Source: Clostridia bacterium
GTDB lineage: Bacteria > Bacillota > DSM-521 > Neomoorellales > Neomoorellaceae
DNA length: 17,726 nt
NCBI GenBank assembly: GCA_030445875.1
Contig: JASUSX010000011.1
Span: 1-17,726 of the forward strand
Reading direction: 5' to 3'
Shown: piece by piece, positions 8 through 10,262 of the stretch
Position numbering within the stretch: the stretch's first letter is position 1
How the letters are laid out: the number at the start of each line of letters is the position of its first letter
Translations under genes and position numbers: made by a program
The notes under the pieces: generated by a model
What the model was told of the DNA's origin: nothing
Databases searched by the model: none
The model's input: the letters and a program-made list of their open reading frames with translations, nothing else

Positions 8-1159
8 GTTTCAATCCCTCATAGGTAGGCTGGTAACAAAATGGTAAGCGTACCTATGATCAAGAACAAGAAGTTTCAATCCCTCATAGGTAGGCTGGTA
101 ACGCGGGTAGGGGAGAATTGTCGGGATAGGCTCCCGGGTTTCAATCCCTCATAGGTAGGCTGGTAACCTTCGGTGGTCACTTCAGCATCGGGGAAAGAGA
201 TGGTTTCAATCCCTCATAGGTAGGCTGGTAACCCGGGTTGGTCCGGCCTTGCGGAAAGCCCTGGCGGGTTTCAATCCCTCATAGGTAGGCTGGTAACATG
301 GACTTCCCCTTTCATCCTGCCACTGGCCGTTTGTTTCAATCCCTCATAGGTAGGCTGGTAACGTGAGGTGGCGGCAACCGGAGGTAGCAGCGATTTTAGT
401 TTCAATCCCTCATAGGTAGGCTGGTAACCTTACCAGCGAGCATGTTTTCATAGCCGGTCGGACCGGGTTTCAATCCCTCATAGGTAGGCTGGTAACGTAT
501 GAAAGAGAATTTGAAAAGGATTATGAGTGGATGTTTCAATCCCTCATAGGTAGGCTGGTAACTTAAGAGGAGCCTCCGCGCGAACACCTCGCCATTGGGT
601 TTCAATCCCTCATAGGTAGGCTGGTAACAAAACGGAAGCTAGGCGTTGGCAGAGGTATCTATTGTTTCAATCCCTCATAGGTAGGCTGGTAACGGAAGGA
701 GGTAAGGTGGGCATGTAGAACGCCTCCTGTTTCAATCCCTCATAGGTAGGCTGGTAACGCGATCATCCTAACCAGCATTTTTCCTCAGTCCCTGTTTCAA
801 TCCCTCATAGGTAGGCTGGTAACCCTGGAGTGCCCCGTTTTGCTTCTTGCGCCAGTCGTGTTTCAATCCCTCATAGGTAGGCTGGTAACCCGGCAGCACT
901 GGCAAGACCTTGCCCCGGTGAATTTTGGTTTCAATCCCTCATAGGTAGGCTGGTAACAAATTTGCTTATAGCGCATCATCACCTCACCGCCCCTGGTTTC
1001 AATCCCTCATAGGTAGGCTGGTAACCCTAAAATCCTTTGTGTCAACCCTTGAAACAAATCACAGTTTCAATCCCTCATAGGTAGGCTGGTAACGGCCAGC
1101 AGTACCGAATCCGATGAAGAGCTAGACCTGTTTCAATCCCTCATAGGTAGGCTGGTAAC
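8..1159 (-). CRISPR. CRISPR array, 18 repeats and 17 spacers, type I-B repeat
   Basis: Eighteen copies of a 30-bp repeat start at 8, 73, 138, 203, 268, 333, 399, 467, 533, 599, 664, 729, 794, 860, 928, 996, 1064 and 1130, and all look identical. The 17 spacers are 35-38 bp. On the plus strand each repeat begins GTTTCAATCC and ends GGCTGGTAAC. On the minus strand it ends GGATTGAAAC, which contains the ATTGAAAC handle known for type I-B crRNAs, so the array is transcribed leftwards in the same direction as the cas genes. The leader and newest spacer are then on the right (1094-1129). Bases 1-7 are probably the tail of another spacer, so the array continues past the left edge. The repeat can form only a short CCT/AGG stem around the cut site. 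Confidence 0.99.
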
Positions 1160-1333: not shown

Positions 1334-2098
1334 TTAACCCACAGGTTCCAGCATACCAAAGCCCTGGGAGTTTTTAGCCCCAATCCCGGCGCTAAACGCC
1401 AATCGCAGCAGCTGCGGTTCTCCAGATAGTACATACTGACCCATCCAGCCCTTAACTACCGTATCCTTATAATACACTACTTTGAGGTCATTACTTCTAA
1501 CGTTAACCGGTTGTAACTCCAGCTGGGCCTCGGGTGGAAATTCAATTCCCAGGGCAGCGGCCTTTTTAAGCAAGTTGGCCTTAACCTGCTGCCCGAATTC
1601 CTTCTCCTGCGGATGATAGTAATAGGTTTTCTTCTTTCCTTCTGCATTCTGTAGAGTAGAATAAACCGTTATCGGTGATAGAGCTCTGCCTCTGGCTTTA
1701 CCGCTGCTGAAATCCGGTAAAGGGGTTAAAGCCAGTGCCCCGGTCCAGATCACGGTACTTCCCAAACGCATCTCTTCTACCGTCAGAAAGGCTTCCGCCA
1801 GTGCCTCGATAAACTCCTTTAATGGGCTACCAACTTTAAACTTTACCGGTGCATGAAAGGTTATATGCCCATCTCTTATCTCTTTAACCCGACCCATAAG
1901 GCGCGAAAATACAAAAAGGCGGAAGGTCCTTTCCCCGCCTACATAACCCTGCTTGTGGATTTGGGGCATCCGCTCTTTTACCAGGTTATAAATAAGGCCC
2001 TGCATCAAGTTGTTATAATGTACAGGTAAGGTTAAACTATCGCCTCCAGCCGGGGTCAGTTCAACCTGAAGGTGCATATCCATATTACCCTTTAACAT
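1334..2098 (-). CDS. cas6: CRISPR-associated endoribonuclease Cas6
   Basis: Cas6 cuts the pre-crRNA within each repeat and leaves the ATTGAAAC 5' handle. The 254-residue protein has the usual RAMP layout of two ferredoxin-like folds. The C-terminal glycine-rich loop, AGIGAKNSQGFGM near residues 239-251, is the best family mark. His48 in PQIHKQGY, followed by the RTFRLFVFS strand, is the likely catalytic histidine. Start choice is open: ATG at 2098 has a distant AAAGGGTGA, while an in-frame ATG at 2083 has AAAGGG four bases upstream. It follows cas2 by 17 bases and is the last gene before the array. In many I-B loci cas6 comes first instead. It is AT-richer than cas3 to cas8b. Confidence 0.95.
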   Translation of the reverse strand: MLKGNMDMHLQVELTPAGGDSLTLPVHYNNLMQGLIYNLVKERMPQIHKQGYVGGERTFRLFVFSRLMGRVKEIRDGHITFHAPVKFKVGSPLKEFIEALAEAFLTVEEMRLGSTVIWTGALALTPLPDFSSGKARGRALSPITVYSTLQNAEGKKKTYYYHPQEKEFGQQVKANLLKKAAALGIEFPPEAQLELQPVNVRSNDLKVVYYKDTVVKGWMGQYVLSGEPQLLRLAFSAGIGAKNSQGFGMLEPVG

Positions 2099-2115
2099 GG
2101 CCTATCAATCACCCT

Positions 2116-2379
2116 TTAATAAATATTACTCTCGCCGCCCTTAACAACACCGAGGGCTTCCCTCTGAGAGTATCTGGTAGTCCGAAAGGTGTAGAACAGC
2201 ACCGAATCTTCCTCGGCGACAATAATCCGCTTCAGCTCCATCTTTAGCTTTTTGTAATTAGCTTCAGAAATGTCACCCTCCAGGACGGAGTTCTGGACCC
2301 AGTACAGGTATTTACGGCTTACTTTTAATACTTTGGACACTCTCTTTTCATTAACGTCGTAAACCTCAATAACAAGCAT
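2116..2379 (-). CDS. cas2: CRISPR-associated endonuclease Cas2
   Basis: Cas2 forms the Cas1-Cas2 integrase core that inserts new spacers next to the leader. It begins MLVIEVYDVNEKRV, the first ferredoxin-like strand with the conserved Asp at residue 8, followed by the typical helix (SKVLKVSRKYLYWVQNSVLEG). With the ATG at 2379 it has 87 residues, a normal length. This start is preferred over an upstream GTG at 2388 because AGGTGG lies at the right distance before it, inside the end of cas1. The cas1 stop is only two bases upstream, so translation is probably coupled. Confidence 0.96.
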   Translation of the reverse strand: MLVIEVYDVNEKRVSKVLKVSRKYLYWVQNSVLEGDISEANYKKLKMELKRIIVAEEDSVLFYTFRTTRYSQREALGVVKGGESNIY

Positions 2380-2381
2380 CT

Positions 2382-3374
2382 TTACCACCTGGCCTGAAAG
2401 GGTTCGTATTCCTTTTCCGCTATAAGGTGTTTTTCCAATTTATAAAGCTCCATCCTGATCAGGCGCCGGTAGGAAACGTTACGCCCCAGATCCCGATGCT
2501 GGATAGTGGTGGCGATTTTATCCTCATATTCTTTGATAAAAAGCATCCGACCACTATCGTTTAAGATTATGCCCCCCAATTTCTTTTGAAAATGGTTCTT
2601 TTTAATCATGTTTCTGCCGATGAGGCTGAAGATTAACCGATCAACGATTATGGGCTTAAATATCTCCGCTACGTCCAGGTTTAGTGAAAAGCGGCGAAAA
2701 TTGGACGTATGCAGGAATCCTATCCGGGGATCCAGGTGGGTACGGTAAATTTCGCTTAATGCCGTGGTATAAAGGAGGGTATTGCCGAAACTAATCAAGG
2801 CGTTCAACTGGTTCTGGGGCGGCCGCCGGCTTCTTTCCTTAAAAGTAAAGTCAGGGTCCCCGATAATTATATCGAAGGCTTGATAATACCTCTCCCTGAT
2901 ATTGCCCTCGATAGCCATGAGTTCTTCAATACTACCCACCCGGTCAATTGACGCAGCCAGGGAATCAATATGATCCAGGGTAACGCTTAATTCTTTACCG
3001 CGATTCTTATAATAGGTAAGCACCTGCCTGATATTCCTGGCAGCCCCGTTAACAAAGGCCCTGGCGATCTTCATCCTCTGTCCCGCTACCAGGTAATGTT
3101 CAGCCTGTTTGATAATCATAAAACCGGAGTTGTAGTGCTCGCGGGGATAATAGCTGCCGACATAATAGTTATAGTGGTTATAAAAATGAAGAATTATCTC
3201 TTTCTCCGCCAGGAACTCCAATAAGCGTTTATTAATGTCTATTTCCCCGAAGATGTGAATCTCGCTCACATCTTCCACCGGGATAAATCTCTTACCCTCT
3301 GCCATTATCAGGCAAAGGGTATTGCTTTCCCTTTTTAGTTCCCCGTCGTTCACAACATAGATCGATTTTTTCAT
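2382..3374 (-). CDS. cas1: CRISPR-associated integrase Cas1, type I-B
   Basis: Cas1 is the metal-dependent integrase of spacer acquisition. The 330-residue product (start ATG 3374) has the N-terminal beta domain followed by the helical catalytic domain. The catalytic triad is visible as Glu156 in MAIEGNIRERYY, His222 in GFLHTSNFRRFSL and Glu237 in LDVAEIFKP. An open frame continues upstream to 3410, but AAAGGTGAT lies six bases before the ATG at 3374 and the protein then starts MKKSIYVVNDGEL, as other I-B Cas1 proteins do. It lies 13 bases after cas4 and just ahead of cas2. It is AT-richer than the interference genes upstream. Confidence 0.97.
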   Translation of the reverse strand: MKKSIYVVNDGELKRESNTLCLIMAEGKRFIPVEDVSEIHIFGEIDINKRLLEFLAEKEIILHFYNHYNYYVGSYYPREHYNSGFMIIKQAEHYLVAGQRMKIARAFVNGAARNIRQVLTYYKNRGKELSVTLDHIDSLAASIDRVGSIEELMAIEGNIRERYYQAFDIIIGDPDFTFKERSRRPPQNQLNALISFGNTLLYTTALSEIYRTHLDPRIGFLHTSNFRRFSLNLDVAEIFKPIIVDRLIFSLIGRNMIKKNHFQKKLGGIILNDSGRMLFIKEYEDKIATTIQHRDLGRNVSYRRLIRMELYKLEKHLIAEKEYEPFQARW

Positions 3375-3387
3375 GCTTACATCACCT

Positions 3388-3897
3388 TTAAGCCCAGCAA
3401 TACTCAGCATAGGCGCAGGGCCGGCACCGTTTTGTCTTTACCGGTGGCGGGGGGGAAGGCAGAGATACAATTGCACGGACGCCGGCGATGGCCTTTTCTA
3501 CTGCCTCTATCCCCACTACATCGAGGACTACTTCTTCTCTTTGTTTTTCTAAAGGGAAAAGTAAAACCCCCTTTAAGTCGAGACCGTAACCTTTAAGGAC
3601 ATAGAGATAATATAGCAATTGTAGGCGGGCGCTTTCCCTGGTATGGCTGGACTTTTTAATCTCGCCGATGACAACTTCCCCCCGGGCACCATGGACCAGA
3701 TCAATCTTGATATTGCCGACCAGGACTTCATGCCGGTCGCGGTTGTAGGCCCTCTCGTGCAGGAAGCGCCCCAGTACTACATTATCATCGTTTTCATCTG
3801 GGGTCATCTGCCGCGCCATTAACCAGACCTGGCGGGGACAGATGGTATAGTACCAGATCAGGGTGCCATTCACCGGCGGCTGGTTAGCATCCAGCAT
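3388..3897 (-). CDS. cas4: CRISPR-associated exonuclease Cas4
   Basis: Cas4 is a RecB-like iron-sulphur nuclease that trims prespacers and selects those with a PAM during adaptation. Counting from the GTG at 3906, the four cluster cysteines are Cys23 (ICPRQVW) and Cys161, Cys164, Cys170 (CRPCAYAEYC). The nuclease core shows His50 in GRFLHE, Asp69 in KIDLV, Glu82-x-Lys84 in GEIKKS and Gln96 in the QLLYYLYVL helix. The ATG at 3897 is the likelier start (169 residues), because a GGAGG lies about nine bases upstream. It overlaps the end of cas3 by 14 bases. The proline run SPPPP before the last cysteines is a linker. Confidence 0.95.
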   Translation of the reverse strand: MLDANQPPVNGTLIWYYTICPRQVWLMARQMTPDENDDNVVLGRFLHERAYNRDRHEVLVGNIKIDLVHGARGEVVIGEIKKSSHTRESARLQLLYYLYVLKGYGLDLKGVLLFPLEKQREEVVLDVVGIEAVEKAIAGVRAIVSLPSPPPPVKTKRCRPCAYAEYCWA

Positions 3898-6160
3898 CCT
3901 CCCCACCCTCCATCAGGGTCGCAATCTTTACCGGAACAAATCCCGTTTCCCGCCGGTAAATCCGCCCGATGCCTTTATCCTGCACCAGCCACAGGTCGGG
4001 GAAGATCTCCCGGATGGCCGGCTCCTTCAGGCCATAAATCATGCCCCCTTCCCGCTGGTACCATTCATCGAGGTGCTTTTTGGGAACAGAGATTGCGTGC
4101 CTGGTAATTTCCCTGAAGGCCTGGCGTCTTTTTTCGAGCCTGGCATAATCACCCTTATCCTCCGGCGTTAAGGGTGCACTAATCGTCCCCAGCAGCCGGG
4201 AGACCCTCGCCTCTGCCCCCTCCACGGCACCCTGCACCACAAGCATTACTTCATCGGGCCGCTTGTCCGTATACAGGTCGACATACTCCCCCCAGCGGCC
4301 TTCGATTATATTACGCCATAGTTCGGAATCTTGAATGGCCCCCTGCAAGGCCCGAAAATAGGCCCGGATTATTTCCCGGCAGTCCTTTTCATCGAAATAC
4401 TCCCTTAAGACCTGACGGGTCAGGTTGAGCAGGGTCGAATCATAAACATAAGAAGCGAAATTCCGGCCCCTCTCGTCTACCAGTTCCGCCAGGTAGATTT
4501 GCCCGCGCCAGGGTCCGGCATGACGGTTGCAACGGCCGGCCACCTGGACGATGCTGTCCATGGGGCCAAGGTCACGAAAAACTATGGCAAAATCCAGGTC
4601 CATGCCCGCTTCGATTACCTGGGTGGCCACCAGACAGCGCGGCTCGCCCCTTTGCTCTTTGGCTTTTAATTGCCGGAGTATCTCCTCCCGGTGTACCGGT
4701 GCTACCCAGGCTGAAAGGAAGAGCGGTTCCGCCCCCCTGGCCTTCATGGCCAGGTACATACGCAGGGCCGCCTCGCGGGTATTTAAGACGATCAGGCAGT
4801 CTTTATGCAGGGCTCCCTTTGCTGCCAAAAAAGCGGCTGCTTCTTCAATGGTCATCCGGCGGTTCAACCAGTGAAACTCGTGCCTGACGGCAGGGAAAGA
4901 AACTGGTTCCGGGGCCAGTTCCAGCCCTGTCGCCAGGCCGGGCTGGGTGGCGGTCATGAGGATAAAGGTAGTCCCCAGGCGTTCTTTCAATAGCTCCAGG
5001 GTTTTTCCAAAGCCCTGCCAGCACCTGACCGGTATGGACTGGGGCTCATCCAGGATAACGATGGCCCGGCTCAAGCGGTGGAAGGACATGGTATCATTTA
5101 CCCGGGGTGAGTAAAGCACTTCCCACAGTTTGGCCAGGGTGGTCACAATCACCGGTTCCTGCCAGTAACGGTAAAAGGCTATAAAGCGCCGGTTGGCTTC
5201 ATCCTCCTCGGTTTCTTCATCAAGGGCTCCATCCGTAAAACTGAGATGGTGATCCTCCATGACGGCAGGGAAGACCTCGCGGGCTACTGCCGCGTTTTGT
5301 TCCACCAGGCTGACAAAGGGGAGCACATAAATGATCCCGGTTGCCTCCAGCCTGGCAGCATTTTCCAGGGCCACTTGCAGGCCGATTAAGGTTTTACCAG
5401 CGCCGGTCGGCAGGGTGAGGGTGTATATCCCCGGGGCTTGAATAATCTGCGAAGCTGCGGTTATTACTTTTTGCCGCACCTGGCCGCGCCATGCCGCCAG
5501 TTTTTTACCCTGCAAAGAGGTGATATAGTTATTTATTTTCTGCCGGTCTACCATCAGGGGCGGGCAGGCTATATCGCCGCCCATGGCCTCCAGGCGGTCG
5601 GCAGTCACCAGTATAGAAGTAAATAGACGCAGCCGGAGCCAATCCGACAATGCGCCCTCACTATCCGGGGTATAAAGATCGATGGTACCGAAAATGAGAT
5701 CCTCCCACGCATCGGTCCCGGGCAACAGGTCCGACCAGTGGCAAATATCGGCCCCCAGTTTCCCGGCTAGCCTGGCGGCACCCGGCCACCAGGGTAACCG
5801 GCCGATGGTCTTCTGCCATTCAGCATAAGGATGGTTGCCCCAGAGGTGTTTGATGTCCGCCAGGTTCTCCAGGGTTGTATGGTGGCGGCGCACGGCTTCG
5901 GCGCAAATGAGGTTACCGGTACGGGCGAGCACCAGGACGGCCGAGGGTTCGGCATGGTTAAAGCGCCGCCGTTCCCCCTCTAGCTTCTTTTGAAAGATAG
6001 GGTGGGACTTGGCCAGGTCATGGAGGAGCAGGGCTTCCTCCATGACCTGATCAAGGTTGAGCCGGCACCAGGCCGCTATCTTAACGGCTATATTCCAGGT
6101 ACGTAGTAGATGATCCTCCAGTCTTTTGCCCGGATGGCTGTAAATTTCACCAGGGCTCAA
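3884..6160 (-). CDS. cas3: Cas3 nuclease-helicase (HD plus DExH)
   Basis: Cas3 is recruited to Cascade R-loops, then unwinds and degrades the target. The 758-residue protein is a full fusion. The N-terminal HD nuclease has His17, His47-Asp48 (LLHDLAK), His69, His93-His94 and Asp187 (TADRLEA). The superfamily 2 helicase has Walker A PTGAGKTL at 251-258, motif II DEPQ at 371-374 (Pro and Gln in place of the more usual Ala and His), motif III TAT at 403-405, motif V QVIEAGMDLD at 514-523 and motif VI QVAGRCNRHA at 539-548. No key residue seems lost. The start is a TTG that overlaps the end of cas5 by 14 bases, with AAAGGGTGG five bases upstream, which suggests coupled and reduced translation. 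Confidence 0.97.
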   Translation of the reverse strand: MSPGEIYSHPGKRLEDHLLRTWNIAVKIAAWCRLNLDQVMEEALLLHDLAKSHPIFQKKLEGERRRFNHAEPSAVLVLARTGNLICAEAVRRHHTTLENLADIKHLWGNHPYAEWQKTIGRLPWWPGAARLAGKLGADICHWSDLLPGTDAWEDLIFGTIDLYTPDSEGALSDWLRLRLFTSILVTADRLEAMGGDIACPPLMVDRQKINNYITSLQGKKLAAWRGQVRQKVITAASQIIQAPGIYTLTLPTGAGKTLIGLQVALENAARLEATGIIYVLPFVSLVEQNAAVAREVFPAVMEDHHLSFTDGALDEETEEDEANRRFIAFYRYWQEPVIVTTLAKLWEVLYSPRVNDTMSFHRLSRAIVILDEPQSIPVRCWQGFGKTLELLKERLGTTFILMTATQPGLATGLELAPEPVSFPAVRHEFHWLNRRMTIEEAAAFLAAKGALHKDCLIVLNTREAALRMYLAMKARGAEPLFLSAWVAPVHREEILRQLKAKEQRGEPRCLVATQVIEAGMDLDFAIVFRDLGPMDSIVQVAGRCNRHAGPWRGQIYLAELVDERGRNFASYVYDSTLLNLTRQVLREYFDEKDCREIIRAYFRALQGAIQDSELWRNIIEGRWGEYVDLYTDKRPDEVMLVVQGAVEGAEARVSRLLGTISAPLTPEDKGDYARLEKRRQAFREITRHAISVPKKHLDEWYQREGGMIYGLKEPAIREIFPDLWLVQDKGIGRIYRRETGFVPVKIATLMEGGEDAGC

Positions 6161-6878
6161 ACCACGCCACCCTTTCTTCGCCTACTTGGGAAACCGGCAG
6201 GTCACCCCGGTCTTTGAGCCACAGGCGTCCCTTATTCTTGAAGTCCAGGTAGATTACGTTGACTGTTTTCTTTAAGCGGCGTTCTGCGTCCAGGCGATAG
6301 GGTACCAGTTCCCGGTGGATGGCCCCGCTGCGCAGGACATCCACCCGGGCGCCCCCGTATACAGGCAGGACCGTCTGCACCCAGGTATCATTCTCTCTAA
6401 TTTCCTCTTCATTAAATTCACCGACATAAACAACATCAGCCAGGGCCCAGGCCACCCCCAGGTAAGGGGTATAGACAAACTCTTCCCGTTCCAGGCGCTT
6501 TTTCAGCTCGGTATAGATTGCGCCTCCCCGCAGGTAAATCCGGTAAGAGGGGTTCTTTACCAGCTGGTGTTTGGCCTGGATATGTTCGCTCATATCGCCG
6601 CTGGGGGTTTTGTATTTAATCATATTGATGGTCGTGGTCATGGGCACAGGTTCCCGGTTAAACCCCAGGGCGATCTGGGTCCCGGTCAGGTGTTGCCAGT
6701 ATTCAGCCCGCCAGGAACCCCGCGTGGCGCCGTGATCAAGGCCGGTTATGGCCCCTATAAGGCCGGCTATTGCCGTCGGCGGGGGGAAGGGAAAGGAAAC
6801 CAGGGAGGTGGTGGTGTATGGTTTCCTGAACATAGCCAGCGGAGCCTTAACATCAAAGACCAAAACCACCCTGATCAC
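6147..6878 (-). CDS. cas5: Cascade subunit Cas5, type I-B
   Basis: Cas5 caps the 5' handle end of the crRNA in Cascade and contacts Cas8b. The 243-residue protein begins with the RAMP strand MIRVVLVFDVKAPLAMFRKP. It is followed by the family segment TTSLVSFPFPPPTAIAGLIG at about 23-42, diagnostic of Cas5. It starts with GTG, and the cas7 stop overlaps it as GTGA, so the two are translationally coupled. Cas7 and Cas5 must assemble in fixed proportion. It shows no sign of damage. Confidence 0.95.
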   Translation of the reverse strand: MIRVVLVFDVKAPLAMFRKPYTTTSLVSFPFPPPTAIAGLIGAITGLDHGATRGSWRAEYWQHLTGTQIALGFNREPVPMTTTINMIKYKTPSGDMSEHIQAKHQLVKNPSYRIYLRGGAIYTELKKRLEREEFVYTPYLGVAWALADVVYVGEFNEEEIRENDTWVQTVLPVYGGARVDVLRSGAIHRELVPYRLDAERRLKKTVNVIYLDFKNKGRLWLKDRGDLPVSQVGEERVAWFEPW

Positions 6879-7789
6879 CTCAACTCGATGTTAGTGAAAC
6901 CGATAGCTTGCAGCCCTTCCTCCCCTTTCAGCCTGAGCTCACGGTCTTTGATAACCCTCACCGTCTCGATAGTATCCTGCTTATCTTTCAGGGCATTGAC
7001 CAGTGGGCTGACGTCTACCAGCACCTCATCCAGGCGCCGCAAGGCCTTCTGCCGGTCGCGGGTCAGCTCCTGACCATCGTCCAGGCAGAGGGCAACCTTT
7101 TCATCCAGGGCGCCTATCTTGCCATCGAAATCCGGGCGGTATTTTATTTCCAGGTAGAGGCGCGCTTTATGCTCGTTCTTGCTCCTGGTGATCAGGTTAT
7201 CAGTGCCCTGCCACAGGGCTGCCGCCAGGTCCTCCAGGTCAGCATCAGCGGCGCCGGTAAAGCCGGCTGCGTGCTGGTTGGCTATACCGTACACCGCGAT
7301 CAAGGCGAAGGGTACTTTATATTCATTGCGAAAGGAACGCTGGTCCTTCGCCTTACCGTCCTTGCCCTCTGTAGCAAAGGCCGAAGTCCCCTGGATAAAC
7401 TCAAAGGTGGCGGCGTGGAGGGAGCGGCCCCACTTAAACTGGACCGGTCCGGTCCAGGAGAAGGATTCATTGCCCAGGGCGAAGGTCACGCCGAAGAGCC
7501 TGGTGTCCAGACACTCCCGCATAACCTCTTCACCGCTGCCTTTACCGGTCTGCGCCTTTAATTCCTCAAACCGGTTCTTCAGCGTCTTGGGTTCACCGTC
7601 GACGAAGACCATCTTGCCCTGCCGCACCCATTCGTCCCGGATCGTCCGCTTAATGCGTACATCAGATACCAGCACCTGCTCCGTATCTTCATCGTAGCGG
7701 GGGTGGTTTTCGTTCAGGGGATCACCGTTGGGGTTGGCATCTTTGACGGTGTAAAGGAAAAGGATTTCGCGCCTGCTGATGAAAGACAT
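6875..7789 (-). CDS. cas7: Cascade backbone subunit Cas7, Csh2 family
   Basis: Cas7 forms the helical backbone that coats the spacer part of the crRNA and kinks out every sixth base. The 304-residue product carries the Csh2/Csd2 signature near the N-terminus: DANPNGDPLN at 18-27, then PRYDEDTEQVLVSDVRIKR. These mark a type I-B (or related I-C) Cas7, and the neighbours decide for I-B. The ATG at 7789 has a strong AAAGGAGG about ten bases upstream, so this abundant subunit probably has high translation. Sixty-one bases separate it from the small-subunit gene, the largest gap in the operon, and a heptamer repeat fills that gap. Confidence 0.97.
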   Translation of the reverse strand: MSFISRREILFLYTVKDANPNGDPLNENHPRYDEDTEQVLVSDVRIKRTIRDEWVRQGKMVFVDGEPKTLKNRFEELKAQTGKGSGEEVMRECLDTRLFGVTFALGNESFSWTGPVQFKWGRSLHAATFEFIQGTSAFATEGKDGKAKDQRSFRNEYKVPFALIAVYGIANQHAAGFTGAADADLEDLAAALWQGTDNLITRSKNEHKARLYLEIKYRPDFDGKIGALDEKVALCLDDGQELTRDRQKALRRLDEVLVDVSPLVNALKDKQDTIETVRVIKDRELRLKGEEGLQAIGFTNIELR

Positions 7790-7850: not shown

Positions 7851-8291
7851 TTACCCTCTTGCATCAGGTACATCAGCAGTAACATCGCTTGCTTTTTCCT
7901 CTTCCGGTTTACCGAATACCTTCCAGAAGTATTTGCTGGCACCGGCAAAACCAGTGGTAAAGGCAAAGTTGCCCTCCACGCCCAGCTCCTGGTCCTCCCC
8001 TTTGAGGATCAACTCGTTCGCTTCGGCGGCCAGGCTGGCAATGTAACCGCTATACTTCATGCTTTCCCTGTAGGCTGCTAAGAGCTGGGGTACCCGCGCC
8101 AGGAGTTTTTTTAAGGCTTTCATGTTCAGGCGGCCGAACTCCAGCTGCTTAAACAACGGAGCAATGCTGATGTCCTTTTCTACCTGGCTGCGGGCCATAT
8201 AGCCCAGAACCACGCCGGCCAGAAAGACACCCCGCCCCAGGGGCGTCATCATGTAGGGGTCCTTAAATTCATCCAGAAACTCCAGCTTCAC
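7851..8291 (-). CDS. Cas8b C-terminal / Cas11b-like small subunit as a separate gene
   Basis: This 146-residue helical protein resembles the C-terminal region of Csh1 (TM1802-type) Cas8b proteins: a RGVFLAGVVLGYMARSQ segment near the start, a long helical middle and GNFAFTTGFAGASKYF near the end. In type I-B that region also works alone as the small subunit Cas11b, normally made by internal translation inside cas8b. Here it is in another frame and overlaps the end of cas8b by 23 bases. The GTG at 8291 is chosen because AGGAGGG lies six bases upstream; an ATG at 8309 has no such site. Together with cas8b the lengths sum to about 649, close to one full Csh1. The family call is by remembered pattern, so moderately sure. 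Confidence 0.75.
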   Translation of the reverse strand: MKLEFLDEFKDPYMMTPLGRGVFLAGVVLGYMARSQVEKDISIAPLFKQLEFGRLNMKALKKLLARVPQLLAAYRESMKYSGYIASLAAEANELILKGEDQELGVEGNFAFTTGFAGASKYFWKVFGKPEEEKASDVTADVPDARG

Positions 8292-9780
8292 GTTCTTCCC
8301 TCCTATCATTTACCCGTAGCATAAATTCGGCCAGGGCATGAGCGAAAAGAATATTCTTCTCGGCGTCGGACCACTTATCGCTATCAAAAATCAGTTTGCC
8401 CGTCCGGGCGTTGACCATCTTCTTATAGGCGGCTACCGGCAGCGTTTCACCCTGAAGCATCCGGGTAATAATTTTCAGGGCAAAATCGCGGCAAACTTTA
8501 CGATCAGCTTCACTCTTACCGGCCAGGCGGCTTAAGGTTACATATAAAGAGCGGACGGCCATATCCAGGGAACGCAATTGGGAAACCCCGGCGAAAAACG
8601 TTTCCATGGTTTCGTTCCAGCAACCTTCAAGAAAGGCCAGCCGTTCCGGCGGTACGTCCTCGACCATCATGTGCACAAGTTCCTGGGCATTGTTGCGTTC
8701 CCAGCAAACGAAGTGGAAAACCAGGCCGGTATTATCCTTACGGGCCAGCTGGCTGAAAAACCGTTCCTCGCTCTGTTCTCCTGGTGTTTGCAGATTGCCA
8801 TCCTTTAGATTAGCTTCGACATTATTGAGAAGGCTGACGAAGATATTTCCTTGTTCCTTGCCGCCTACTGCCTCAGGGATTGCCCATAACCGCATCCCCG
8901 GCAAAAGGGAGCTGCTGGTTAGCTTTCTTTCCGCATGATCCCGACCGCCGGAGATATCAGCCAGGCAGGTAAGGCAGATGGGGAACGTGGTCGCCGCCCG
9001 TTCTTTGGCCAGGCCGGGAACAAAGTTAACCTTATCGTCGGTTGCGAACTTAAAGATCTTCTTTAACCCGGTGAAAGCGCTGGCAGTTTGTCCGCAAACA
9101 GCGCAAATCTGCTCCCCATCCTGCGACCCGGATCGCAATCCCGATTTGCCGGCCTTCCCCTTAGGGCTGGTACCCCTTCCCTCCAGTGATTCCTTCAGCT
9201 TGCGCTGGAAATAGGCGACAAAGGCCGGGATATCCCCCGGGTAAAGGAACAGGTCCCCGTCAGCTGCACCGAAAAGGATAATATGGGACTGCTTGAGGTC
9301 CAGGTCATCCAGCACTATATCGATTTTTTTCTCCAGGTCGGCCATAATTATATCTACCGAACCTGCCACCAGGGTGCCGGTGGCTTCATACTCCAGAAGA
9401 AGTTTGTTGCGGATCTTGAAGAAGTGACTGTCTTTATCCTGGCGCCAGTCGCCGCTCTTGCCAAGCAGGTATTCCCTATTCTTTTCCCGGCTACTTTTGG
9501 GCCGGCCCAGTTTATGCAGGGGGGTAAAACCCCAGGTGGCGGCCGAACCCACCCGGTCCCGGTAAAGATATTTCACCTTCATCGCCGGATCGGACTGGAA
9601 GTGAGCGACATCGACCCTGCTTACCCCCCGGACCACCAGCACCTCCGCCCGGGTATCGGGAATATCCAGGTAAACCCGGATTACCCGACCTTCCTTTTCC
9701 AGGGGGAATTTCAGGTAGGGTTCCAGTCCTTCCCCCTCCTCCAGATCCCCCAGGGCTCTTACAGCTTGGAGAAAACCCAT
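8269..9780 (-). CDS. cas8b: Cascade large subunit Cas8b (Csh1), lacking the C-terminal part
   Basis: Cas8b reads the PAM and starts R-loop formation. The 503-residue protein is the first gene of the operon. It carries a Cys4 zinc site, Cys226-x2-Cys229 (ICAVCG) and Cys269-x2-Cys272 (ICLTC), that is usual in Csh1 proteins of type I-B. A charged low-complexity linker (about 200-222) precedes it. The ATG at 9780 has AAGGCGGTG close upstream. The protein is shorter than the 600 or more residues common for Csh1, and the missing C-terminal part is encoded by the overlapping downstream gene. Sequence similarity among Cas8 proteins is low; the call rests on the zinc site, size and position next to cas7. 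Confidence 0.9.
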   Translation of the reverse strand: MGFLQAVRALGDLEEGEGLEPYLKFPLEKEGRVIRVYLDIPDTRAEVLVVRGVSRVDVAHFQSDPAMKVKYLYRDRVGSAATWGFTPLHKLGRPKSSREKNREYLLGKSGDWRQDKDSHFFKIRNKLLLEYEATGTLVAGSVDIIMADLEKKIDIVLDDLDLKQSHIILFGAADGDLFLYPGDIPAFVAYFQRKLKESLEGRGTSPKGKAGKSGLRSGSQDGEQICAVCGQTASAFTGLKKIFKFATDDKVNFVPGLAKERAATTFPICLTCLADISGGRDHAERKLTSSSLLPGMRLWAIPEAVGGKEQGNIFVSLLNNVEANLKDGNLQTPGEQSEERFFSQLARKDNTGLVFHFVCWERNNAQELVHMMVEDVPPERLAFLEGCWNETMETFFAGVSQLRSLDMAVRSLYVTLSRLAGKSEADRKVCRDFALKIITRMLQGETLPVAAYKKMVNARTGKLIFDSDKWSDAEKNILFAHALAEFMLRVNDRREEREAGVSG

Positions 9781-9800
9781 ATCATCACCGCCTTCTGTAT

Positions 9801-9823
9801 TTAATTATATAAGTATAATTACC
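9801..9823 (+). promoter_or_regulatory. Putative Cascade target site in the cas promoter
   Basis: The bases from 9804 on, ATTATATAAGTATAATTA, match the pseudo-spacer at 9933-9950 in 15 of 18 positions, with mismatches at 6, 12 and 17. Beyond that the match ends. The preceding TTA (9801-9803) would be the PAM. The first six guide bases cover the TATAAT box of the cas promoter exactly. Binding here would block RNA polymerase. The limited match predicts binding without cleavage. The region is AT-rich, so chance agreement needs testing. Confidence 0.6.
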
Positions 9824-9832
9824 TTATGCGTA
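9804..9832 (-). promoter_or_regulatory. cas operon promoter
   Basis: On the minus strand a perfect TATAAT lies at 9809-9804. At a 17-base spacing the -35 is TACGCA (9832-9827), which is weak. Transcription would start near 9797 and give a leader of about 17 bases with the cas8b ribosome binding site. A good TTGACA lies at 9862-9857, but the hexamer 17 bases on is only TACTTT (9839-9834), so a second upstream start is possible. The weak -35 suggests moderate strength. The -10 lies inside the site matched by the crRNA-like element. Confidence 0.65.
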
Positions 9833-9866
9833 TAAAGTACCATGGCCTTCTTTTTTTGTCAAGGGG

Positions 9867-9895
9867 TTTACTAATACTATTTTGCTGGATAAAAT
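9867..9895 (+). promoter_or_regulatory. Promoter for the crRNA-like RNA
   Basis: TTTACT (9867-9872), exactly 17 bases, then TAAAAT (9890-9895). Transcription would start about seven bases on, near 9902-9903, which is the first base of the degenerate repeat. It diverges from the cas promoter. Confidence 0.65.
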
Positions 9896-9902
9896 AAAAT
9901 AT

Positions 9903-9981
9903 GCCACCAGGATTCCTATTAGGGATTGAAACATTATTTAAGTCTAATGAGAAAAATAGCCTACCTATAAGGAATATATCT
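9903..9981 (+). ncRNA. CreR/CreA-like crRNA gene (degenerate mini-CRISPR)
   Basis: The bases 9903-9932 align without gaps to the array repeat (minus-strand sense) at 24 of 30 positions, and the last 12 bases, ending GGGATTGAAAC, are identical. A second, weaker copy at 9952-9981 keeps AGCCTACCTAT and AAGGAAT but has lost the handle. Between them lie 19 bases (25 up to the conserved core). Both copies keep the CCT/AGG pair around a changed loop base, as needed for Cas6. Cutting at both would free about 49 bases (9925-9973). From memory, crRNA-like RNAs beside cas8 in Haloarcula I-B (CreA, CreR) share this layout and use Cascade as a repressor. Here the guide matches the cas promoter. A dead repeat remnant is the alternative. 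Confidence 0.7.
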
Positions 9982-10009
9982 CCCTGCGGCGGTATGACCA
10001 AGACGACCG

Positions 10010-10030
10010 GCTACCATTTTTCTTGGTAGC
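10010..10030 (+). other. Short hairpin after the crRNA-like gene
   Basis: GCTACCA (10010-10016) pairs with TGGTAGC (10024-10030) across a seven-base T-rich loop. It could end the divergent RNA, but no T-run follows on either strand, so an intrinsic terminator is doubtful. Confidence 0.4.
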
Positions 10031-10224
10031 TGATTACTAGCCTTTGTCGTTTATCTTACCCATGTGATACTTCGCCACCAGGGTAAAAGTTTCCTGCGCT
10101 TTCGTCAGAATTAACCAAAAATATCTCGCAGGGAACGGTAGGGAAATGGATTTGGGCCAGTTATTTTTCGTCAGCGTCAATTGGAGGTATATAGCTGGCA
10201 AATTAGGTAGCGTACATATATTAA
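10031..10224. other. Intergenic stretch with no gene seen
   Basis: About 190 bases between the hairpin and the tatD terminator. I see no start codon with a ribosome binding site on either strand. TTTCGTCAG occurs twice (10100-10108 and 10166-10174). No tRNA or other known RNA is visible. Confidence 0.5.
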
Positions 10225-10258
10225 AGACCCGCGGTGCTATAAGCAAAACCGCGGGTCT
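10225..10258 (-). terminator. Intrinsic terminator of metG-tatD
   Basis: AGACCCGCGGT (10225-10235) pairs perfectly with ACCGCGGGTCT (10248-10258) across a 12-base loop. On the minus strand it begins five bases after the tatD stop and is followed by TTTAATATAT. The stem is strong and the T-run short. Confidence 0.85.
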
Positions 10259-10262
10259 GATA

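What the first reader, a model, noticed from the sequence alone, without database searches (positions are those of the whole stretch)
9801..9823. Pseudo-spacer guide matches the -10 box of the cas8b promoter, with mismatches at 6 and 12
Guide ATTATTTAAGTCTAATGA (9933-9950) against promoter ATTATATAAGTATAATTA (9804-9821): 15 of 18 match. The mismatches are at 6, 12 and 17. In type I Cascade every sixth guide base is flipped out and unread, so the effective seed is perfect up to position 16. The first six bases cover TATAAT exactly. A TTA sits where a PAM would be; from memory TTA or TTN-type PAMs occur in clostridial I-B systems. Complementarity stops after about 18 bases, which predicts binding without Cas3 cleavage. 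Together this suggests a Cascade-dependent feedback loop on the cas operon. Caution: the region is AT-rich.
Basis: partly seen in the sequence, partly recalled or inferred. Interest (0 to 1): 0.92.

Follow-up and report, generated by a model that had tools for sequence, protein, structure and literature searches.

The report
Mini-CRISPR guide aimed at cas leader
Next to its CRISPR immune genes this bacterium carries a tiny, degenerate CRISPR unit whose guide RNA matches the start of the cas operon, so the immune complex very probably turns down its own production; this looks like a new example of a known type of self-control (CreR).

Summary
The guide (9933-9950) matches 9804-9821 at 15 of 18 positions, mismatched at 6, 12 and 17, beside TTA. 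In 20,000 dinucleotide shuffles of the leader, a 16-nt match perfect outside positions 6 and 12 arose twice, never with TTA. The guide sits between two degenerate array repeats (24/30 and 18/30): a 19-nt mini-CRISPR. Among 77 distinct cas8b upstream regions scanned, six including the window have a handle-anchored guide, each different, matching its own leader beside TTA. Over positions 1-15, 7 of 7 mismatches fall at 6 or 12 and 78 of 78 other cells match. Protospacers of the window array and of a same-genus relative's array give TTA 5, TTG 2, CTA 2, CTG 1 of 10. One correction: in all six loci the best predicted promoter lies upstream of the target, so the guide probably covers the transcription start and leader, not the -10 box. 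This is the anatomy of CreR, the cas-regulating RNA reported in 2023 for types I-B, I-E and V-A: a new member of a known kind. Expression, processing and repression are inferred, not shown.

The parts
9933..9951 (+). CreR pseudo-spacer (19-nt guide); its first 16 nt match the cas8b leader except at 6 and 12
   Evidence: Read; match; bounded by the two pseudo-repeats
9903..9932 (+). first pseudo-repeat (psiR1), 24/30 identical to the array repeat; last 8 nt ATTGAAAC identical (8-nt 5' handle)
   Evidence: best match of the repeat in 9781-10262; best identity in 3000 Markov resamples never above 20/30
9952..9981 (+). second pseudo-repeat (psiR2), 18/30 overall, 15/22 in the part that would form the 3' handle, core AGCCTACCTAT intact
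   Evidence: weak on its own (18/30 or more in 79 of 3000 resamples), but a similar core (AGCYTACCTA, then AAGG) follows the guide in relatives L010, L014, L009 and L016
9804..9821 (+). CreR target (protospacer) in the cas8b leader, 23 nt from the cas8b start codon
   Evidence: single site in the draft genome
9801..9803 (+). PAM TTA
   Evidence: TTA in 6 of 6 strict loci; protospacer flanks TTA 5, TTG 2, CTA 2, CTG 1 of 10
9834..9862 (-). best predicted cas8b promoter: -35 TTGACA (9862-9857), 17 nt, -10 TACTTT (9839-9834), with TG one base before the -10; start predicted near 9827
   Evidence: score 8.3; TATAAT alternative at 9809-9804 scores 7.5; TG read; prediction only, below the cut-off
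9867..9895 (+). predicted CreR promoter: TTTACT (9867-9872), 17 nt, TAAAAT (9890-9895), ending 7 nt before psiR1
   Evidence: prediction only (4 promoter-like sites found in the scanned region against 1.6 expected)
8269..9780 (-). cas8b (TM1802/Csh1-like, 503 aa), first gene of the operon and target of the loop
   Evidence: TIGR02556 2e-18, TIGR02591 1.5e-7, both below the curated cut-offs
7851..8309 (-). separate ORF matching the C-terminal part of Csh1/TM1802 (candidate Cas11b small subunit)
   Evidence: found next to cas8b in another frame in 13 of 13 close-clade loci tested
1334..7789 (-). rest of the type I-B operon: cas7, cas5, cas3, cas4, cas1, cas2, cas6
8..1159 (-). CRISPR array, 18 repeats (GTTACCAGCCTACCTATGAGGGATTGAAAC in crRNA sense), 17 spacers of 35-38 nt
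   Evidence: the contig begins at window base 1, so the array may continue beyond it

Best explanation
This is a CreR: a two-pseudo-repeat mini-CRISPR on the strand opposite to the cas operon. Its transcript would be processed by Cas6 into a crRNA-like RNA (8-nt handle, 19-nt guide, part of psiR2 as 3' handle). Loaded into the operon's own type I-B Cascade, it would bind the cas8b leader through PAM TTA and pairing at positions 1-5, 7-11 and 13-16 (6 and 12 are unread) and block transcription of cas8b and the genes behind it. The guide is too short to be expected to license Cas3 cleavage. When array crRNAs are abundant or phage proteins block Cascade, CreR occupancy should fall and cas expression rise. 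Shown by sequence: the element, its target, the flanking TTA, the pairing kept in relatives, the drift at 6 and 12. Predicted: promoters and geometry. Inferred: transcription, processing, binding, repression, relief.
For: 15/18 match with TTA; 0 of 20,000 shuffles equal it at the read positions with TTA. Six distinct loci among 77 distinct upstream regions have a handle-anchored guide matching their own leader with TTA: window, L007, L010 (=L018), L014 (=L026), L025, L120. Own-leader matches are 13-16 of 16, the other five leaders 9-12 of 16. Over positions 1-15, 7 of 7 mismatches sit at 6 or 12 and 78 of 78 other cells match; combinatorial probability 1.1e-7. Of 1865 handle-like strings in 960,610 nt of held DNA (157 records, overlapping copies counted), only these six loci plus one pair in L124, whose sequence looks like a CRISPR repeat, have a TTA-flanked target within 400 nt at >=13 of 14 read positions. 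PAM: 193 spacers (17 window, 176 from the array of G010, whose Cas8b is 73% identical) against 160 kb from two relatives; at >=85% identity 10 hits, TTA 5, TTG 2, CTA 2, CTG 1; background TTA 1.6%. Published: a Parageobacillus type I-B system prefers TTA, and crRNAs of 26 nt or less repress instead of cutting (PMC10551041, passages); in T. maritima I-B1 a mismatch at position 6 has no effect on binding (PMC13199841, passages); in haloarchaeal CreTA changes at 6 or 12 are tolerated while 1-5 and 7-11 are essential (PMC8501985, passages).
Against: No RNA or expression data. The cut at position 15 was chosen after seeing the data: going to 16 adds one mismatch at 16 in each of L007, L120 and L025. 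For L007 and L120 the raw match is weak on its own (>=13/16 in 30 and 84 of 4000 shuffles). Three other upstream regions with a psiR1-spacer-psiR2 unit, seen by eye, do not fit cleanly: L009/L029 (37-nt spacer) has no convincing target in 14 kb; L016/L033 has its best target of 18 kb inside its own leader with TTA, but on the other strand and mismatched at 7, 10 and 12; L027 aims at a small ORF with mismatches at 6, 9, 11, 14 and 18, and another site with CTA scores higher in total (14 against 13 of 18). Only the 31 regions printed were looked at by eye for such units; the others were scanned for pairs alone, so more units without a match may exist. The same-genus relative G010 shows no unit upstream of cas8b. 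71 of 77 regions have no strict pair. The protospacer PAM rests mostly on G010's array: 1 of the 10 hits is a window spacer (TTG). At >=80% identity 5 of 16 flanks are none of TTA, TTG, CTA, and one window spacer has a 28/35 match flanked by ACG. A survey lists CCA as a type I-B PAM in Moorella for some repeat cluster (PMC8482600, passages).
Confidence: 0.9

Rival explanations
1. Antisense RNA: the guide transcript pairs with the cas8b mRNA leader near the ribosome-binding site and blocks translation, without Cascade acting on DNA.
For: In the six strict loci the guide is antisense to the cas8b leader, close upstream of the start codon.
Against: 7 of 7 mismatches over positions 1-15 at the unread positions 6 and 12, and TTA flanking in 6 of 6, are expected for Cascade on DNA and not for RNA-RNA pairing; repeat-like flanks; the possible seventh pair, L016, lies on the other strand.
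Confidence: 0.04
2. CreTA-type module: the guide is an antitoxin RNA that keeps a nearby toxin silent.
For: Same two-pseudo-repeat anatomy and PAM-flanked partial target as CreTA (PMC8501985, passages). L027 has a comparable unit that may aim at a 27-codon ORF.
Against: In the window only 20 nt separate the PAM from the cas8b start codon, leaving no room for a toxin gene between target and cas8b.
Confidence: 0.03
3. Chance match of a decayed array remnant to an AT-rich leader (71% A+T).
For: The leader is AT-rich; >=14/16 matches occur in 46 of 20,000 shuffles when mismatch positions and PAM are ignored.
Against: Read positions perfect with TTA in 0 of 20,000; five further loci repeat the pattern with different sequences.
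Confidence: 0.02
4. Self-targeting spacer under decay (autoimmunity remnant) with no regulatory role.
For: Degenerate repeats and a target in the own genome.
Against: Read positions are kept while unread ones drift, in six loci: selection for pairing, not decay. The guide is 19 nt, against array spacers of 35-38 nt.
Confidence: 0.01

Closest known systems
CreR, cas-regulating RNA (Liu et al. 2023, Cell Host Microbe, doi 10.1016/j.chom.2023.08.005; not held; known to me here through passages of reviews, and recall)
   Same: mini-CRISPR whose guide is partly complementary to the cas promoter; reported for types I-B, I-E and V-A
   Different: another locus, here with comparative evidence of drift at positions 6 and 12. 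Whether this organism or clade is in the 2023 list could not be checked
CreTA (CreA antitoxin RNA of Haloarcula, type I-B; PMC8501985 passages; PMC9458426 abstract)
   Same: two degenerate pseudo-repeats, PAM-flanked target paired at 1-5 and 7-11, with 6 and 12 free
   Different: CreA represses a toxin RNA gene; here the target is the cas8b leader and there is no room for a toxin
Parageobacillus type I-B repression with short crRNAs (PMC10551041, passages)
   Same: PAM TTA; crRNAs of 26 nt or less make the system repress instead of cut
   Different: engineered guides against chosen genes

Membership tests
CreR | degenerate repeats around a short spacer next to the cas operon | tested here: met
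   psiR1 24/30, psiR2 18/30, 19-nt spacer; 122 nt between cas8b and psiR1
CreR | limited complementarity of the guide to the cas promoter/leader beside a PAM | tested here: met
   15/18 beside TTA; shuffle test and five further loci
CreR | flanking trinucleotide is a PAM used by this system | tested here: met
   TTA 5, TTG 2, CTA 2, CTG 1 of 10 protospacers at >=85% identity; 9 of the 10 from the array of the relative with a 73%-identical Cas8b, so met for the close relative and by extension for the window
CreR | cognate type I effector encoded next to it | tested here: met
   cas8b-like, cas7, cas5, cas3, cas6
CreR | guide RNA expressed, processed by Cas6 and bound to Cascade | not testable with these tools
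   only promoter-like hexamers were seen
CreR | Cascade-dependent repression of cas genes, relieved by crRNAs or anti-CRISPR proteins | not testable with these tools
   needs an experiment
CreTA | guide represses a toxin gene | tested here: not met
   20 nt between PAM and cas8b start codon; no room for a toxin transcript there. Other targets in the unassembled part of the genome cannot be excluded

The most novel reading that the evidence does not exclude
CreR guides and cas8b leaders of this phylum are co-evolving pairs with a fixed geometry (target just downstream of the -10, TTA facing the ribosome-binding site). Natural drift confined to positions 6 and 12 writes the read-out of Cascade into the genome, so autoregulation can be recognised from sequence alone. 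The same cassette can switch between guarding cas8b (CreR) and a small hydrophobic peptide (L027).
Probability: 0.35. Interest if true: 0.6.

Novelty: new member of a known kind. Interest (0 to 1): 0.42.

Why it matters
It adds a well-supported case of RNA-guided self-control of type I-B CRISPR. It also suggests a simple genomic test, covarying guide and leader with mismatches only at unread positions, that separates Cascade-mediated regulation from antisense pairing or chance. Cells with such loops may respond to anti-CRISPR proteins by making more Cas protein (as the reviews describe for CreR).

Tried and rejected
In six of six loci the best hexamer pair puts the -10 upstream of the target, ending 4-15 nt before the 16-nt core. 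In the window the call is not strong: TACTTT has 3 of 6 consensus bases and one search did not list it.

Close-relative search by single protein in genome contigs found nothing; with the alignment A1 it gave 23 loci, several of them the same loci as (grouped). Viral contigs gave none. No phage record matched the array. Six plasmid records matched it at 60-80% identity with no annotated feature under the match and were not pursued.

Protospacers: window spacer s890 matched G009, but inside another CRISPR array, so its flank was not counted. s103 matched G012 at 28/35 with flank ACG and was not counted. A search for a phage portal family in 18 genomes found one, in G017, used as a target. One search required an exact shared 10-mer and gave 8 hits at >=85% (TTA 5, CTA 2, TTG 1); the exhaustive recount gave 10 and is the one used.

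A no-handle control (4028 pairs) was not broken down; I take it to be swamped by CRISPR arrays and draw nothing from it. What was left out of the 77 regions: L019 and L049 (too little upstream sequence); L017, L021, L034 and L040 (cas8b start or upstream missing, not scanned); two partial hits (G095:C32, G109:C83), not fetched. Weak entries inside the 77: L102 has 80 nt upstream, and L111's region begins inside a cas8b cut by the contig end; for the 53 regions the stretch includes 60 coding nt. L007 first appeared in a scan that ignored positions 6 and 12, but passes the position-blind 13/16 filter. L025 fails the low-complexity filter but is seen. Counting L016 as a seventh pair would add mismatches at 7, 10 and 12.

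Full report
What is there. The window holds a type I-B cas operon on the minus strand (cas8b-like, a separate C-terminal cas8b ORF, cas7, cas5, cas3, cas4, cas1, cas2, cas6), followed at the window's start by an array of 18 repeats, GTTACCAGCCTACCTATGAGGGATTGAAAC in crRNA sense. Upstream of cas8b, on the plus strand, lies a degenerate copy of the repeat (9903-9932, 24/30, last 8 nt identical), a 19-nt pseudo-spacer (9933-9951) and a second degenerate copy (9952-9981, 18/30, core AGCCTACCTAT intact). The second copy is weak on its own (18/30 or more in 79 of 3000 resamples) but has counterparts after the guide in L010, L014, L009 and L016. The finding mentions no second copy.

The match. The guide matches 9804-9821 at 15 of 18 positions, mismatched at 6, 12 and 17, next to TTA; the second-best sites in the 125-nt region have 11 of 18. 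Shuffles of that region reach 14/16 in 46 of 20,000, a perfect match outside positions 6 and 12 in 2 of 20,000, and the latter with TTA in 0 of 20,000. The PAM+target pattern, with up to 2 mismatches, occurs once in the draft genome (58.8% complete).

Relatives. cas8b relatives were gathered from genome searches. 99 upstream regions were scanned; 97 had at least 130 nt, and these are 77 distinct ones, a few of them poor (L102 short, L111 misplaced). Six distinct loci show a strict guide-target pair: the window, L010 (=L018), L014 (=L026), L025, and two with more distant cas8b, L007 and L120. Their guides differ, and each fits its own leader (13-16 of 16) better than the other five leaders (9-12 of 16). 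All six targets are flanked by TTA. Over positions 1-15 the mismatches are: window 6 and 12; L007 6 and 12; L120 6 and 12; L010 6; L014 none; L025 none. So 7 of 7 mismatches fall in the 12 cells of positions 6 and 12, and 78 of 78 other cells match; combinatorial probability 1.1e-7. Two cautions: the loci were chosen because they match well (filtered on total matches without regard to position), and the cut at 15 was set after seeing the data (at position 16 L007, L120 and L025 mismatch). Own-leader shuffles (4000 each) reach the observed total in 30 (L007), 84 (L120), 2 (L010), 0 (L014) and 2 (L025). A scan of every handle-like string (1865 in 960,610 nt of 157 held records, overlapping records counted) found these six loci and one pair in L124 that looks like a CRISPR repeat.

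Results that do not fit. L009/L029 has two pseudo-repeats around a full-length 37-nt spacer and no convincing target within 14 kb. L016/L033 has its best target of 18 kb inside its own cas8b leader with TTA, but inverted and mismatched at 7, 10 and 12. L027's guide has its best seed match, with TTA and mismatches at 6, 9, 11, 14 and 18, in the leader of a 27-codon ORF upstream of cas8b, though another site (CTA) has one more match in total. L013/L023 shows a single repeat. The same-genus relative G010 shows no unit; its cas8b starts 26 nt after another ORF, in a run of genes that look type III-like by eye. Units were sought by eye only in the 31 regions.

PAM. The 17 window spacers and 176 spacers of G010 were compared with 160 kb from two relatives (100 kb of a G002 contig that looks prophage-bearing, 60 kb around a portal gene of G017). 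At >=90% identity there are 6 hits (TTA 3, CTA 2, TTG 1); at >=85%, 10 (TTA 5, TTG 2, CTA 2, CTG 1); at >=80%, 16 (TTA 6, TTG 3, CTA 2, and one each of CTT, TCA, GCT, CCA, CTG); background TTA 1.6%. The window's own clear hit (33/35) has TTG. This agrees with the Parageobacillus I-B system, where TTA is best and CTA, TCA, TTG and TTT are weaker (PMC10551041, passages), and with TTN/TNA for C. thermocellum as tabulated in PMC13199841 (passages). PMC8482600 lists CCA for type I-B in Moorella (passages); its repeat cluster was not visible to me.

Geometry. The best cas8b-sense hexamer pair in each of the six loci ends 4-15 nt upstream of the 16-nt target core (window 14, L007 10, L120 4, L010 15, L014 15, L025 12). 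In the window this is TTGACA, 17 nt, TACTTT, with TG one base before the -10 (my reading). The target therefore most likely covers the transcription start and leader, between promoter and ribosome-binding site, and not the -10 box. These are predictions; the strict consensus scan did not list this promoter. A promoter for the guide (TTTACT, 17 nt, TAAAAT, 7 nt before psiR1) is predicted too.

Mechanism. In T. maritima I-B1 a mismatch at position 6 does not affect binding, while mismatches at 1-5 and 7 give little or none (PMC13199841, passages). In haloarchaeal CreTA single changes at 6 or 12 are tolerated and changes at the other ten of the first 12 positions are not (PMC8501985, passages). 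In Parageobacillus I-B, crRNAs of 26 nt or less repress without cleavage (PMC10551041, passages). The window's unit fits all three: perfect at 1-5, 7-11 and 13-16, free at 6 and 12, guide 19 nt. The most likely working is transcriptional autorepression of the cas operon by Cascade carrying this RNA. Transcription, processing, binding and repression are inferred.

What it is called. This anatomy and target are those of CreR, cas-regulating RNAs reported for types I-B, I-E and V-A (passages of PMC12737573, PMC13131331 and PMC12948488; the 2023 paper itself is not held). The listings of three searches showed me no paper on this locus, but they were general, only a few papers were opened, and subscription journals are mostly missing. 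Verdict: new member of a known kind, with clear comparative support.

Noticed in passing
L027:5540-5815 (Desulfallas sp. Bu1-1): A two-pseudo-repeat unit whose guide has its best seed match, with TTA, in the leader of a 27-codon hydrophobic ORF with its own promoter-like and ribosome-binding sequences, upstream of cas8b: a candidate CreTA-like guard.
   Followed up: partly
window 7851-8309 and 8269-9780: Cas8b is split: a ~500-aa N-terminal part and a separate overlapping ~150-aa ORF matching the C-terminal part (candidate stand-alone Cas11b). Both parts are found in different frames in 13 of 13 close-clade loci tested, whereas many more distant relatives match the family nearly full length in one frame.
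   Followed up: partly
L009 (=L029), region upstream of cas8b: Mini-CRISPR with a full-length 37-nt spacer between degenerate repeats; no convincing target in 14 kb.
   Followed up: partly
L016 (=L033), region upstream of cas8b: Mini-CRISPR whose best target is in its own leader, but on the opposite strand (TTA, 13/16), with a duplicated handle before the guide.
   Followed up: partly
L013 (=L023), region upstream of cas8b: A single repeat about 30 nt from the cas8b start codon, directly followed by a terminator-like hairpin and T run (by eye): possibly the remnant of such a unit.
   Followed up: no
G002:C71 (L149, L150): A contig that looks prophage-bearing, matched by several spacers of the G010 array and one window spacer.
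   Followed up: partly
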